64,000 nt of DNA, taken from assembly GCF_001468005.1 (NCBI RefSeq), contig NZ_LNYY01000019.1, positions 714,445 to 778,444 on the forward strand. Reading direction: 5' to 3'. Shown piece after piece: positions 6,631-10,192 of this stretch (positions are counted from its first letter, which is position 1; the number at the start of each line of letters is the position of its first letter). The translations under genes and the position numbers were made by a program. The notes under the pieces are model-generated. The model saw nothing but the letters and a program-made list of their open reading frames with translations. It searched no databases and was not told the DNA's origin. The stretch comes from Legionella steelei. Its GTDB lineage: Bacteria > Pseudomonadota > Gammaproteobacteria > Legionellales > Legionellaceae.

Positions 6631-6727
6631 CATATTGATTTATCTGTTTATTAGGAAACTAGCTACTTTACTTTAAACCTTAAAAAGTTTATAATTTGAA
6701 CAGATGTTTAATATTGGAGTCTCTTCC

Positions 6728-8500
6728 GTGCCTACTACTTCATTGCCCACCCGATCTGTACCAATGACTTTAAGTGAAAGTCAACTAGAACGATTGTTTG
6801 CATCCATAGAACGAAATGGCAATCCTCATACCGCACAAACAGATTCTTATTTAGCAATTCAGCTTCTTTCTCGTTTTGGACTACAGAATGCGAAACAAGT
6901 AGCTGAGTTTCTTAAAACAGCTGGTGGTAACGAAACCATCAACATGATAGTTCAAGAGCTTGTGAAAGAAGAGGCACAAATTCAATATATCAGAGAGCAA
7001 ACCGCAGAAGAAATGCTCAAGCAAGAAGGCTTGCTTCTTCGCCTTCTTGCATTCATTGCAAAAGATAAAGAGCTTGCGAAACACGTCAATCAAATTATTC
7101 AACAACAAATCGATCAAAAACTTAAAGAAACAAAAACTGTTGAAGGAAGTAGTGCTAACTCTATTGCGATACAAATCTTGGACGCTAATATTCGAGCCTA
7201 TAGCAACGTACTTAACGCTCTTAATGAAGAACAAGAAGCTCTGGAAGAAGAATTAGAGGAAATAGAAGAAGCGCTGAATGCTCTTGAAGAAGAAGCCTTA
7301 TTAATGGAAGAAGAGCATGCCCATATGACTGACCATTTGGATGCGCTTAATGCGTTTCTTCAAGCACCCCTGTTCAACAATCAACCAATTACTCAATTTG
7401 CTAGTTATTCAAGCCAACAAATAGCTTCTTTAAGTGCACAACTTGCAGCGCTTAGAGCGCAACATACTGCACAGGTTGTCCCCTCAATTGATGTCAGTAG
7501 GGCACAAACCATTGAATCACCTATCGACAGAAAAATTCGCATGCTGCAAGAGCGACTTGACTTTTATCAAAATCAATTTGCACAACCTCCACATAGTCAT
7601 GAACAAGTAGTTCAACGATTAATCGATCAGGTACGTGCTCGATTAGCCGAAATGCAACATCACGATGAAATGCAAGTGCCTCTGATGTCCCGTCAACGTG
7701 AATTGGATGGATTAAGATTACAAGAACGTGGATTCCTGCAAGCACAGCAGTTTTTGAAAAAAGAAAAAATTCTCCTTAATGCCCATTTGGAACCTGTTAA
7801 TGATTTTAATCAGGCTTACTTAATTATTGATCCGAGTCATAAAGCACGTTATCAAAAACACGGTGATTCCTATGTCGTTCTTTCTGAGGGCCTTGATCCA
7901 CAGCGTTTGAGCGAAGATGACTGGTTGCAAGCAAAACTAAACTATGAGCGCGCAAAAGCCGATGTTTGTTGTGTTAATGCAGATTACCATGCGAGAAGAC
8001 AGCAACGATTTGACTCACTGAATCAACGTATGGAACCTCTTCAACTTAAGAAAAACAATTTCATTGATCGTCTTGATCAAGTTAAGGCAAATAAGGTTGA
8101 GATACTTCATGCATTATCCAGTGCTAAAGCACAACGTGCGTTACTAAACCAACCTCGTGAGGAAGTTACGCCTTTGGCAATGTCTCCCAGACCAACTCCC
8201 AAAGCAACGCCTAAACCCGCTCCCAAATGCAGCTACTCACTGATGATGCGCAATTTAGAGTGCTTGGTACCAACCCATGCACCTGCGCCACGCCCTACAG
8301 ACATTAGAAATGTGAGAGATGTACTTGAAGCAGTGGTTTCACCTGCTCGAAAAAATGAATTGGATGAACTCATCAATGAAGTCAGACCTGGTGAAATTAT
8401 GCAGCCAGAAGTGAGACTTGGTTGGCTCTATAGAATCAAAAAACTCATACCGGATATCCCTGTACCCGAGTTGGACTCTCAATTAAAATTTAAAAAATAA
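6728..8500 (+). CDS. Large coiled-coil protein, candidate Dot/Icm substrate
   Basis: The product has about 590 residues and no signal peptide or membrane helix. Long heptad-like segments dominate, notably a Glu-rich stretch (LEEELEEIEEALNALEEE) near residue 180 and Gln/Arg-rich helices at about 300-470. A Pro-rich linker (PRPTPKATPKPAPK) then joins a small C-terminal domain of about 90 residues. ATG 6704 opens the frame, but GGAG at 6716-6719 stands 8 nt before GTG 6728, which I prefer. I do not recognise the family. Size, coiled coils and monocistronic context are typical of Legionella effectors, but the C-terminus (DSQLKFKK) is basic rather than Glu-rich, so secretion is uncertain. Confidence 0.6.
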   Translation: MPTTSLPTRSVPMTLSESQLERLFASIERNGNPHTAQTDSYLAIQLLSRFGLQNAKQVAEFLKTAGGNETINMIVQELVKEEAQIQYIREQTAEEMLKQEGLLLRLLAFIAKDKELAKHVNQIIQQQIDQKLKETKTVEGSSANSIAIQILDANIRAYSNVLNALNEEQEALEEELEEIEEALNALEEEALLMEEEHAHMTDHLDALNAFLQAPLFNNQPITQFASYSSQQIASLSAQLAALRAQHTAQVVPSIDVSRAQTIESPIDRKIRMLQERLDFYQNQFAQPPHSHEQVVQRLIDQVRARLAEMQHHDEMQVPLMSRQRELDGLRLQERGFLQAQQFLKKEKILLNAHLEPVNDFNQAYLIIDPSHKARYQKHGDSYVVLSEGLDPQRLSEDDWLQAKLNYERAKADVCCVNADYHARRQQRFDSLNQRMEPLQLKKNNFIDRLDQVKANKVEILHALSSAKAQRALLNQPREEVTPLAMSPRPTPKATPKPAPKCSYSLMMRNLECLVPTHAPAPRPTDIRNVRDVLEAVVSPARKNELDELINEVRPGEIMQPEVRLGWLYRIKKLIPDIPVPELDSQLKFKK

Positions 8501-8639: not shown

Positions 8640-8669
8640 TTGACAAGATCGAATACAAATTGGTACCAT
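8640..8669 (+). promoter_or_regulatory. Probable sigma-70 promoter for the Val-leader/MFS transcript
   Basis: A consensus -35 box TTGACA (8640-8645) is followed 18 nt later by TACCAT (8664-8669), a 4/6 match to the -10 box. Transcription would start near 8676, about 30 nt before the leader peptide ATG. Confidence 0.5.
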
Positions 8670-8707
8670 CAAAAAATAAATAATTTATTCCACACTCTGT
8701 AATATAT

Positions 8708-8824
8708 ATGAACAAAAACGCGCATCATCAATGTTCTTTAAGCAACTCTTTTGGGTTGGTGCGTGCTATTGCTTCTGTCGCGTCTGTGGTGGTGGTCGTC
8801 GTGGTCTTTCTCTCCTCACCCTAG
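8708..8824 (+). CDS. Valine-rich leader peptide (attenuator leader)
   Basis: The frame ATG 8708 to TAG 8822-8824 encodes 38 residues with seven consecutive Val codons (GTG/GTC) at positions 27-33, further Val at 18 and 24, and scattered Leu and Ile. It ends 84 nt before the MFS transporter start. This is the organisation of the ilv/leu-type leader peptides, where ribosome stalling at scarce valyl-tRNA controls the downstream gene. The stop codon lies inside one arm of an alternative RNA pairing (8819-8826 with 8850-8857). The main weakness is the absence of a clear Shine-Dalgarno before ATG 8708. An overlapping frame from ATG 8731 is also open but has no ribosome site and no biased codon run. 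Confidence 0.65.
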   Translation: MNKNAHHQCSLSNSFGLVRAIASVASVVVVVVVFLSSP

Positions 8825-8873
8825 AGTTGCGTTTTCGATTATTTAGCCTCTCTAGGGAGAAGGCAAAATAATC
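8819..8873 (+). promoter_or_regulatory. Mutually exclusive hairpins of a putative attenuator
   Basis: Structure A pairs CCCTAGAG (8819-8826, containing the leader stop codon) perfectly with CTCTAGGG (8850-8857). Structure B is a long hairpin with 5' arm 8837-8852 and 3' arm 8857-8873: 4 bp and 3 bp blocks plus an 8-bp GATTATTT/AAATAATC base, loop TAGG. A and B share 8850-8852 and 8857, so they cannot form together. A ribosome finishing the leader would cover the 5' arm of A and let B form; one stalled on the Val codons would leave A free. B lacks a following T run, so the mechanism may be Rho-assisted or act on translation. Confidence 0.55.
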
Positions 8874-8908
8874 AAACGATACGACTAACTATCTTGAGGA
8901 AATTCACT

Positions 8909-10192
8909 ATGGGAAATACACTCGATGCAGAGGCATCGCAGAAACAAATCACTTATCGCGCCATCTTTATCATTAGTTTATGTGCTGCATTTTTATTTTA
9001 TAAATATATCCTCCAAAATTTTCCAAGCGTAATGCCTCAACAATTGATGGATACATTTAACCTACAAGGACTAGGTCTTGGTGTTTTATCAGGAGTATAT
9101 TTCTGGACCTATCTGATTGTGCCTTTATTTGTAGGAATTATTCTCGATCATTATGGAACACGCTGGGTTACAACAGGGGCCATTTTTTGCTGCGCTATCG
9201 GAATTTATATTTTCTCCCAAGCCCAGGAGTTAAATACCGCGATTTTAGGGCGTGCTTTAACAGGAGTTGGTGTTTCCTTTGCTTCCATCGCTTATTTCAA
9301 ATTAGCAGCAGTATGGTTTCCAAACAAATATTATGCATTGCTTACCTCGTTCCTTGTTACCGCTGCCATGGTTGGTGCAATATTTGGACAAATGCCGCTA
9401 GCATGGTTAGTCAGTCAGATCGGATGGAGAGCCAGTTTAGTTGATGTAGCTTGGATGGGGATCATTTTAGCATTCTTGTTCCTGTTTGTTGTTCAAGACA
9501 AACCATCCTATTCCATTGAATCATCAAAATCTGAAATTCATGCTTCTAAAAACCCGCATTTATGGCAAGATATTTTGTTAATAGTAAAAAATAAACAAAA
9601 CTGGCTATTAACCGGATACAGTGGTTTAGCATTCTCTCCCATAGTTATTTTTTGTGGCTTATGGGGAAATCCTTTTTTGCAACAAGCATATCATTTAGAT
9701 AAATTAGTTGCCCCATCTCTCATTTCTCTGGTTTTTGTAGGATTAGCTCTTGCATGTCCTGTATTTGCTTTATTTACTAACCGCATACAAAATCGTTGTG
9801 CTTTTATGTTTTACAGTACTTTAGTGTCTGCTTTATCCATTAGTTTGGTAATCTACGCACATCCTATGCCACTCTGGTTACTGAGCATATTGCTCTTCCT
9901 TTTTGGGTTTAGTTTAGGGGCATTTCCAATCGTATTTGTAATTGGAAAAGAATCAAATCCATTATACCTGGCAGGTACAGTAACCTCTTTAATCAATGCC
10001 AGCGATGCATTTCTGGATGCAGTTACTGAGCCAGCAATAGGAAAACTTCTTGATGTCTTTAGTAACGCCAGTACTTCTCATGAGTTTTCACTATTTAGTT
10101 ATCATATCGCTCTCGCTATTTTGCCGTTATACCAGATAATCGGAGCATTTTTGATGCGATGGGTTAAAGATGAGCATCGTGCGGTACATTAA
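8909..10192 (+). CDS. MFS transporter (Pht-like), predicted valine/nutrient importer
   Basis: This is a 427-residue major facilitator protein with about 12 transmembrane helices. The loop between helices 2 and 3 carries the MFS pattern (GIILDHYGTRW), and helix 4 has 'LGRALTGVGVSFASIAYFK'. It resembles the Legionella phagosomal transporter (Pht) group, one of whose members has been linked to valine uptake. The start is ATG 8909 with GAGGA at 8896-8900, not the TTG overlapping that site. The Val-rich leader upstream makes a branched-chain amino acid, most likely valine, the leading substrate; this is inferred from regulation and not from the protein itself. It is followed by a palindromic element at a convergent junction. 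Confidence 0.8.
   Translation: MGNTLDAEASQKQITYRAIFIISLCAAFLFYKYILQNFPSVMPQQLMDTFNLQGLGLGVLSGVYFWTYLIVPLFVGIILDHYGTRWVTTGAIFCCAIGIYIFSQAQELNTAILGRALTGVGVSFASIAYFKLAAVWFPNKYYALLTSFLVTAAMVGAIFGQMPLAWLVSQIGWRASLVDVAWMGIILAFLFLFVVQDKPSYSIESSKSEIHASKNPHLWQDILLIVKNKQNWLLTGYSGLAFSPIVIFCGLWGNPFLQQAYHLDKLVAPSLISLVFVGLALACPVFALFTNRIQNRCAFMFYSTLVSALSISLVIYAHPMPLWLLSILLFLFGFSLGAFPIVFVIGKESNPLYLAGTVTSLINASDAFLDAVTEPAIGKLLDVFSNASTSHEFSLFSYHIALAILPLYQIIGAFLMRWVKDEHRAVH

What the first reader, a model, noticed from the sequence alone, without database searches (positions are those of the whole stretch)
8640..8909. Valine-codon leader peptide and alternative hairpins upstream of an MFS transporter
A 38-codon frame (8708-8824) has seven consecutive Val codons and stops within CCCTAGAG. 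That arm pairs perfectly with CTCTAGGG at 8850-8857. This pairing excludes a 15-bp hairpin (8837-8873) that lies between the leader and the transporter start. This is the architecture of amino-acid attenuation (as in ilv and leu leaders), but applied to a transporter, which suggests the transporter imports valine and is switched on by valine starvation. The Legionella Pht transporters are known nutrient importers, one of them linked to valine. Weak points: no clear ribosome site at 8708, and no U run after the second hairpin.
Basis: partly seen in the sequence, partly recalled or inferred. Interest (0 to 1): 0.85.

Follow-up and report, generated by a model that had tools for sequence, protein, structure and literature searches.

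The report
Valine-codon switch before a transporter
A Legionella species that probably cannot make valine appears to read a run of valine codons in a short leader message to decide when to translate a transporter gene, and sister genes use the same RNA design with isoleucine codons instead.

Summary
The leader frame (8708-8824), its Val-rich end, its stop inside CCCTAGAG and a TTGACA-N18-TAnnAT promoter occur in 25 of 25 same-genus orthologues; the CTCTAGGG arm in 24 (L020 has CTCTAGGA). In the same genome this RNA design precedes a second MFS gene with an Ile run and a mitochondrial-carrier-like gene with a Leu/Val/Ile mix. Two other designs carry Val or Ile runs before transporters in sister species. 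IlvC is absent from 45 of 45 genomes, suggesting auxotrophy.

The missing U-run is real. Control of translation fits better: the leader's last codons (TCCTCA, 8813-8818) pair with the transporter's Shine-Dalgarno (TGAGGA, 8895-8900). Folding closes that site in 25 of 25; a ribosome at the last one or two Val codons would cover the anti-SD and free it.

Best reading: ribosome-mediated translational attenuation by valyl-tRNA shortage. Not shown: valine transport, any expression change, and how stalls at earlier Val codons open the site (in the model they mostly do not). New variant of a known kind.

The parts
8640..8669 (+). sigma-70-type promoter TTGACA - 18 nt - TACCAT
   Evidence: TTGACA-N18-TAnnAT in 25 of 25 orthologues, the -10 ending 28-39 nt before the leader ATG
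8708..8824 (+). leader peptide frame, 38 codons, stop TAG
   Evidence: aligned frame in 25 of 25 orthologues; pN/pS of the last 16 codons 0.49 in frame against 0.99 and 1.64 in the other frames, whole leader 0.79 against 0.78 and 0.97
8786..8806 (+). seven consecutive Val codons (proposed control codons)
   Evidence: all four Val codons used across orthologues
8813..8818 (+). anti-Shine-Dalgarno TCCTCA inside the leader frame
   Evidence: pairs 8895-8900; helix 92.5% paired in 25 orthologues, 3 of 6 pairs with a change on both sides
8819..8826 (+). arm 2, CCCTAGAG, holding the stop codon
   Evidence: invariant in 25 of 25; A-U, G-U and G-C versions of one 2:3 pair in the carrier loci
8837..8873 (+). 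hairpin 3:4, 15 bp, no U-run after it
8850..8857 (+). arm 3, CTCTAGGG, complementary to arm 2
   Evidence: first seven bases invariant in 25, full arm in 24 (L020 CTCTAGGA)
8882..8891 (+). 3' side of the outer helix (CGACT and CTA) that pairs with the leader stop region in the closed fold
   Evidence: helix 2, 85.4% of cells paired, no pair with a change on both sides
8895..8900 (+). Shine-Dalgarno TGAGGA of the transporter
   Evidence: closed in the free fold in 25 of 25; mean unpaired 0.013 against 0.38 in 16 other MFS genes of this genome
8909..10192 (+). MFS transporter, ATG start (TTG at 8894 is a less likely start)
   Evidence: Pfam MFS_1 115.2 bits, cut-off 33.4; 25 orthologues, the window's own included, at 67-100% identity

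Best explanation
The region 8640-8911 is a leader-peptide attenuator that senses charged valyl-tRNA and acts on translation of the downstream transporter. Shown by sequence and folding: left alone, the mRNA is predicted to close a long hairpin in which the end of the leader frame (TCCTCA) pairs with the transporter's Shine-Dalgarno. Inferred: with enough valine, ribosomes finish the leader and leave, the hairpin closes, and the transporter is little translated. When valyl-tRNA is short, a ribosome dwells in the Val run. At the last Val codons its leading edge covers the anti-Shine-Dalgarno. Arm 2 (CCCTAGAG), just ahead of the ribosome, can pair with arm 3 as it is transcribed, and this delays the long hairpin. 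The transporter is then translated. The likely purpose is uptake of valine by an organism that cannot make it.
For: Leader frame, Val-rich end and promoter in 25 of 25 orthologues, arms in 24. Shine-Dalgarno closed in 25 of 25 free folds, opening when the A site reaches stop-7 to stop-6; in the window these are the sixth and seventh Val codons (unpaired 0.02 at stop-8, 0.21 at stop-7, 0.40 at stop-6). Shuffling the upstream part of six Val leaders gave equal or tighter closure in 0 to 6 of 40 shuffles each. Anti-SD and SD differ together between families: Val TCTCCTCA:TGAGGAGA, Ile TGCCCTCT:GGAGGGTA, one carrier locus TTCTCTCTAAT:ATTGGAGAGAA; own helix score 17.7 (25 Val loci) and 16.2 (29 Ile loci) against 14.1 (Val leader, Ile SD) and 12.7 (Ile leader, Val SD). 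One pair of helix 2:3 covaries in the carrier loci. The same design carries Ile codons before another MFS gene in 28 of 28 genus loci, two of them with mixed Val-Ile runs. Other designs carry Val runs or Ile runs (5 of 5) in genomes where the first design is absent. IlvC absent in 45 of 45 genomes, found in 14 of 14 controls.
Against: No expression or transport data. At equilibrium a ribosome at stop-12 or stop-8 leaves the SD at most 0.25 unpaired in 25 of 25; with 2:3 enforced at stop-12 it is at most 0.17 in 22 of 25, and at stop-10 it exceeds 0.25 in 10 of 25. Helix 2:3 is 0 to 16 kcal/mol less stable than the best fold. A ribosome on the stop codon also opens the SD, so the switch must rest on dwell time. 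In 5 of 25 orthologues the last Val is at stop-8 or stop-9, followed by Ile or Leu. Whole-leader pN/pS is no better than frame +1. Covariation of the closed structure is modest: score 0.136 against 0.125 (19 of 500 shuffles reach it), and pairs changed on both sides (6 against 5.0) and further pair types (25 against 27.0) do not exceed shuffles. The anti-SD window pairs with the SD at least as well as every window 26-120 nt further up in only 18 of 25 Val, 15 of 29 Ile and 2 of 4 carrier loci. The Ile loci close less well (mean 0.143; under 0.15 in 14 of 28), and for three of them 4 to 11 of 40 shuffles reach the real closure. The leader ATG has no visible Shine-Dalgarno.
Confidence: 0.66

Rival explanations
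1. Same Val sensor, but acting on transcription: hairpin 3:4, or Rho factor on the untranslated stretch after the leader, ends the transcript when valine is plentiful; a stalled ribosome lets 2:3 form and prevents it.
For: 2:3 forms with probability near 1 as arm 3 emerges and holds for about 14-24 nt more in four of five loci tested, longer in L016, the timing of a classical antiterminator. Arm 2 is invariant in 25 of 25 and arm 3 in 24. The consensus scan did flag one terminator-like site on this strand, but inside the leader, over the Val run (8784-8804, 9 pairs of which 3 are G-C, tail TCTTTCTCTC; 0.3 sites expected in the region); I did not pursue it.
Against: At most 3 T in the 10 nt after hairpin 3:4 in 25 of 25; no terminator-like site on this strand between the leader and the gene; the matched anti-SD and SD are unexplained by it. 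Rho could not be tested.
Confidence: 0.22
2. The leader is a general sensor of slow translation or a nascent-chain arrest peptide (hydrophobic run and Pro before the stop), not a valine sensor.
For: CCC (Pro) precedes the stop in the CCCTAGAG leaders by construction of the arm; a ribosome at the stop also opens the SD in the model.
Against: Codon identity differs by locus, Val against Ile, on one RNA design; the CTCTGAG and CCTGTCTTAACGG designs end in other residues; CCC is also part of arm 2.
Confidence: 0.07
3. The frame encodes a working small membrane protein; the RNA folding is incidental.
For: The C-terminal part is hydrophobic in the leaders aligned.
Against: The N-terminal half is poorly conserved; the stop codon sits inside the conserved RNA arm; no second promoter-like site was found on this strand between leader and gene; the peptide changes wholesale between designs.
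Confidence: 0.04

Closest known systems
E. coli ilvB, ilvGMEDA and leu attenuators (recalled, not searched)
   Same: short leader with runs of branched-chain codons, exclusive hairpins
   Different: those act on biosynthesis genes and end transcription at a hairpin plus U-run; here a transporter, no U-run, SD sequestered
Actinobacterial LEU element before leuA (PMC1262725; passages read)
   Same: leader with a codon run; a base stem that pairs leader sequence with the SD of the gene
   Different: there the Leu codons themselves pair with the SD of a biosynthesis gene, as part of a pseudoknot; here the anti-SD lies after the Val run and the gene is a transporter; no sequence comparison was made
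B. subtilis rtpLP-rtpA (anti-TRAP) leader (recalled; listing and abstract start only, which speaks of the T-box)
   Same: ribosome stalled at control codons exposes the SD of the next gene
   Different: Trp codons, Gram-positive, gene for a regulatory protein
erm translational attenuators (listing and abstract starts only; details recalled)
   Same: stalled leader ribosome opens a hairpin that hides the SD
   Different: stall is caused by antibiotic, not by lack of an amino acid
Toxoplasma ApiAT1 arginine transporter (PMC8370653; listing and abstract start only; role of an upstream frame recalled, the listing counts that term 10 times)
   Same: an intracellular parasite adjusts an amino acid importer to its substrate
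   Different: eukaryote, different translation machinery
Pht family of MFS transporters, PhtA (threonine) and PhtJ (valine) of L. pneumophila (passages of PMC3920079 and PMC4158876)
   Same: MFS genes of the same genus that acquire amino acids the cell cannot make
   Different: no leader-peptide control in the passages read; identity of the window gene with a named Pht was not tested

Membership tests
classical leader-peptide transcription attenuator (trp/ilv/leu type) | short translated leader rich in the codons of the regulating amino acid | tested here: met
   25 of 25 orthologues, 4-11 Val each; translation itself not measured
classical leader-peptide transcription attenuator (trp/ilv/leu type) | two mutually exclusive helices sharing one arm | tested here: met
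   2:3 (8 bp in 24 of 25, 7 in L020) against 3:4
classical leader-peptide transcription attenuator (trp/ilv/leu type) | terminator hairpin followed by a U-run | tested here: not met
   mean 1.76 T in the 10 nt after the hairpin, maximum 3, 25 orthologues; no terminator-like site between leader and gene, one inside the leader over the Val run
translational attenuator (erm, rtpLP type) | SD of the downstream gene closed in the default fold | tested here: met
   25 of 25 Val loci; mean unpaired 0.013 against 0.38 in 16 other MFS genes; folding prediction only
translational attenuator (erm, rtpLP type) | ribosome held at the control codons opens the SD | tested here: inconclusive
   opens at stop-7/-6, where the last Val lies in 20 of 25; stays closed for earlier Val codons at equilibrium
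translational attenuator (erm, rtpLP type) | expression rises when the amino acid is short | not testable with these tools
   no expression data held
known RNA family (T-box, riboswitch, catalogued leader) | match at the Rfam gathering score | tested here: not met
   0 matches in the window
Pht nutrient transporters | member of the major facilitator superfamily | tested here: met
   PF07690, 115.2 bits
Pht nutrient transporters | clusters with named Pht proteins and moves an amino acid | not tested
   no named Pht sequence was at hand; nearest solved chains are SLC37A4, E 2e-07

The most novel reading that the evidence does not exclude
One RNA design acts as an exchangeable tRNA-charge sensor in Legionella: the same arms and sequestered SD carry a Val run before one importer, an Ile run before another, and a mixed Leu/Val/Ile run before a mitochondrial-carrier-like gene, forming a small branched-chain amino acid starvation regulon built on translation in organisms that lost the biosynthesis genes such attenuators usually control. 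Sister lineages rebuilt the same logic with unrelated RNA arms.
Probability: 0.45. Interest if true: 0.82.

Novelty: new variant of a known kind. Interest (0 to 1): 0.72.

Why it matters
Reviews say that amino acid supply steers when L. pneumophila replicates in host cells (passages). This genome shows 55 MFS_1 matches, and their substrates cannot be read from sequence. If right, the codon run before a gene names the substrate that it should import, which makes substrate prediction testable. It would also show attenuation placed on importers in organisms without the pathway, and rebuilt with different RNA arms. None of the rows listed by eight paper searches (titles and abstract starts, capped lists, open-licence papers only) describes leader-peptide control in Legionella.

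Tried and rejected
Terminator after the leader: rejected for lack of a U-run. Known RNA families: none in the window. A scan of 48 places of MFS matches in this genome (ATG frames of 14-75 codons, two best rows shown per place) showed only two that combine 5 or more of one residue in 8 codons with a GU-free 8-bp arm over the stop: Val (window) and Ile; L068 and L072 (Leu) and L094 (Ser) reach 5 without such an arm. That scan could not see the mitochondrial-carrier locus of this genome, which is not an MFS gene; it came from covariance models, one of which had two carrier loci of other genomes in its training set. The bare arm pattern is not proof by itself: the reversed control pattern matches in 12 of 45 genomes; for the CTCTGAG pattern the control is 0 in 45. 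Hits L174, L180, L184 and L185 outside the genus were judged chance (no fitting leader and gene). First start-codon picks were wrong for several Ile loci and were replaced; L148 and L178 stayed wrong and are in the counts. The parser for the CTCTGAG design failed on 6 of 18 loci: three of those genomes (G008, G016, G035) hold the exact arm pair, three (G010, G027, G044) do not. One search was read at first as a clean switch; one search qualified it. The 9 G-U loci in my note should read 8. Weak model hits such as G012:C300 were not examined.

Full report
What is there. The window lies in a Legionella genome. Neither the Val run nor the arm pair is expected in 100 shuffles of the window. A promoter-like TTGACA-N18-TACCAT (8640-8669) precedes it. 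The next gene, 8909-10192, is an MFS protein.

Conservation. All 45 same-genus genomes have MFS relatives; 25, the window's included, have an orthologue at 67-100% identity. All 25 carry the leader at the same place: 36-39 codons from the conserved ATG, 4-11 Val, stop in CCC-TAG-AG. CCCTAGAG, CTCTAGG and AATAATC are invariant. The eighth base of arm 3 is G in 24; L020 has CTCTAGGA, so its 2:3 helix has 7 pairs, and accordingly finds no exact pattern in G010. TTGACA-N18-TAnnAT occurs in 25 of 25. Length changes in the aligned leaders are whole codons. In the last 16 codons pN/pS is 0.49 in frame against 0.99 and 1.64 in the other two frames; over the whole leader the signal is weak (0.79 against 0.78 and 0.97). 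All four Val codons are used (96, 58, 53 and 13).

How it switches. At most 3 T follow the hairpin in 10 nt in any of the 25. Instead the end of the leader frame pairs with the transporter's SD. In the closed fold TCCTCA:TGAGGA closes a chain of helices around hairpin 3:4. Counted on 25 sequences this structure has 88.8% standard pairs against 34-53% when slid; the anti-SD:SD helix has 92.5%, with both-side changes at 3 of 6 pairs. The structure came from one of the sequences, which favours it over the slid versions; the covariation score exceeds shuffles modestly (19 of 500 reach it), and two other measures do not exceed them. With no ribosome the SD is closed in 25 of 25 (0 to 0.12 unpaired). 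It opens to 0.23-0.65 when the A site is at stop-6. In 18 of 25 the last Val is at stop-6, in 2 at stop-7, in 4 at stop-8 and in 1 at stop-9 (read). By comparison the mean is 0.38 in 16 other MFS genes of this genome (of 28 tried, those where an SD motif was found; 3 of the 16 are under 0.15), and 0.013 in the Val loci. Two points stand against a simple switch: ribosomes at earlier Val codons leave the SD mostly closed at equilibrium, and a ribosome on the stop codon also opens it. In five loci tested, 2:3 forms with probability near 1 until about 14-24 nt after arm 3 (longer in L016), then gives way, so its role is probably kinetic. RNAalifold placed 2:3 inside the anti-SD:SD helix, so the two can coexist; 2:3 is not by itself the opener. 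The scan also flags a terminator-like site inside the leader, over the Val run; I have no evidence for or against its use.

The same design with other codons. The exact pattern CCCTAGAG-N-CTCTAGGG is in 36 of 45 genus genomes; the reversed control matches in 12. Besides the Val locus it marks a different MFS gene whose leader ends in Ile runs such as IIIIILPSLP. Of 28 genus loci of that gene (69-100% identity over an 80-residue query), 26 leaders were found at once and the other two (L182, with arm CTCTGGGG, and L183). L146 and L153 have mixed Val-Ile runs; their genomes, G030 and G043, are two of the five (with G027, G036, G044) where neither the pattern searches nor the loci read showed a separate Val leader. 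Covariance models added a third locus in the window's own genome, before a mitochondrial-carrier-like gene with leaders such as SSLVIFFLPSLP; related loci of other genomes had already appeared. One of these proteins was tested and matches PF00153 (120 residues of L237); the others are named by likeness of their first residues, least clear for L238. In 12 such genus loci one pair of the 2:3 helix is A-U in 2, G-U in 8 and G-C in 1; L235 also has G-U there and loses the terminal pair. This is the best covariation evidence for 2:3. The anti-SD follows the SD from family to family: own scores 17.7 (25 Val), 16.2 (29 Ile, one from outside the genus) and 16.8 (4 carrier loci, two from outside); Val leader with Ile SD 14.1, Ile leader with Val SD 12.7, but carrier leader with Val SD 14.6 and Val leader with carrier SD 15.1. 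As a caution, the anti-SD window is at least as good as every window 26-120 nt further up in only 18 of 25 Val, 15 of 29 Ile and 2 of 4 carrier loci, and the Ile loci close less tightly (mean 0.143, under 0.15 in 14 of 28).

Different designs, same logic. Many genomes without the Val design have an MFS relative at about 42% identity behind a Val-rich leader with arms GCTCTGAG:CTCAGGGC. Twelve of 18 such loci parsed (2-8 Val in the 15 codons before the arm, the 2 being G002), and the exact pattern with its CGG extension is in 13 of 45 genomes, only at these loci, with 0 control matches. With G002 and G018, whose arms differ, I count 15 genomes, none among the 25. The distance from stop to start is 89-182 nt in five loci folded, with the free SD 0 to 0.20 unpaired and opening at different codons. 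Five genomes without the Ile-type gene have another MFS relative (51-52% identity to the window gene) behind leaders ending INIIRLS, with 13-nt arm CCTGTCTTAACGG over the stop and a matching CCGTTAAGACAGG or one-base variant; 5 of 5. Their SD changes little in the model, so for them I claim resemblance only. In a family sample of 140 genomes, outside the genus, an Ile leader (G118), two carrier leaders (G082, G074) and two leaders before relatives of the window gene (G079, G067) were found; four other pattern sites there looked like chance.

Physiology. IlvC is absent from 45 of 45 genus genomes and present in 14 of 14 controls, in line with the valine, leucine and isoleucine auxotrophy of L. 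pneumophila and with PhtJ as a valine transporter (passages of PMC3920079 and PMC4158876). That the window gene imports valine is inferred.

Novelty. Rfam has no match at gathering score. None of the rows listed by eight paper searches describes leader peptides in Legionella, and PMC2965389, a survey of attenuators, does not mention Legionella in its main text. The closest precedent read is the actinobacterial LEU element (passages). I rate it a new variant of a known kind: leader attenuation acting on translation, placed on importers, with exchangeable codons.

Noticed in passing
L227 (G000:C21:538652-538757) and L228-L238: The same leader design precedes a mitochondrial-carrier-like gene in 12 genus loci (PF00153 tested for one), with a mixed Leu/Val/Ile run. 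L. pneumophila LncP is a secreted carrier of this family (PMC3252375, title and abstract start); whether these are orthologues of it was not tested.
   Followed up: partly
   Followed up: partly
L146 (G030), L153 (G043): Leaders of the Ile-type transporter with mixed VVVVII or VVVII runs, in two genomes where no separate Val leader was seen.
   Followed up: no
window 8784-8804: Terminator-like site flagged by the consensus scan over the Val run itself, with tail TCTTTCTCTC.
   Followed up: no
L016-L019, about 9-62 nt after the conserved leader ATG: A stem inside the leader frame before the Val run (GACTGCAAC...GTTGTTGCATGCAGTC), with looser counterparts in other orthologues; possibly a pause hairpin.
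   Followed up: no
L117 and L118 (G003:C22): Two copies of the Val-leader transporter locus in opposite orientation, about 45 kb apart on one contig; the 410 bases shown are the same.
   Followed up: no
L060, L151 (G016:C73): The frame of the Ile-type transporter is split in two here (162 and 250 residues), although its leader is present.
   Followed up: no
L056 (G015:C30, contig end): A second Ile leader in G015; no open frame of 120 residues was seen after it before the contig ends.
   Followed up: no
window 6704-8500: LidA-type long coiled-coil protein (PF18641) directly upstream of the leader, same strand.
   Followed up: no
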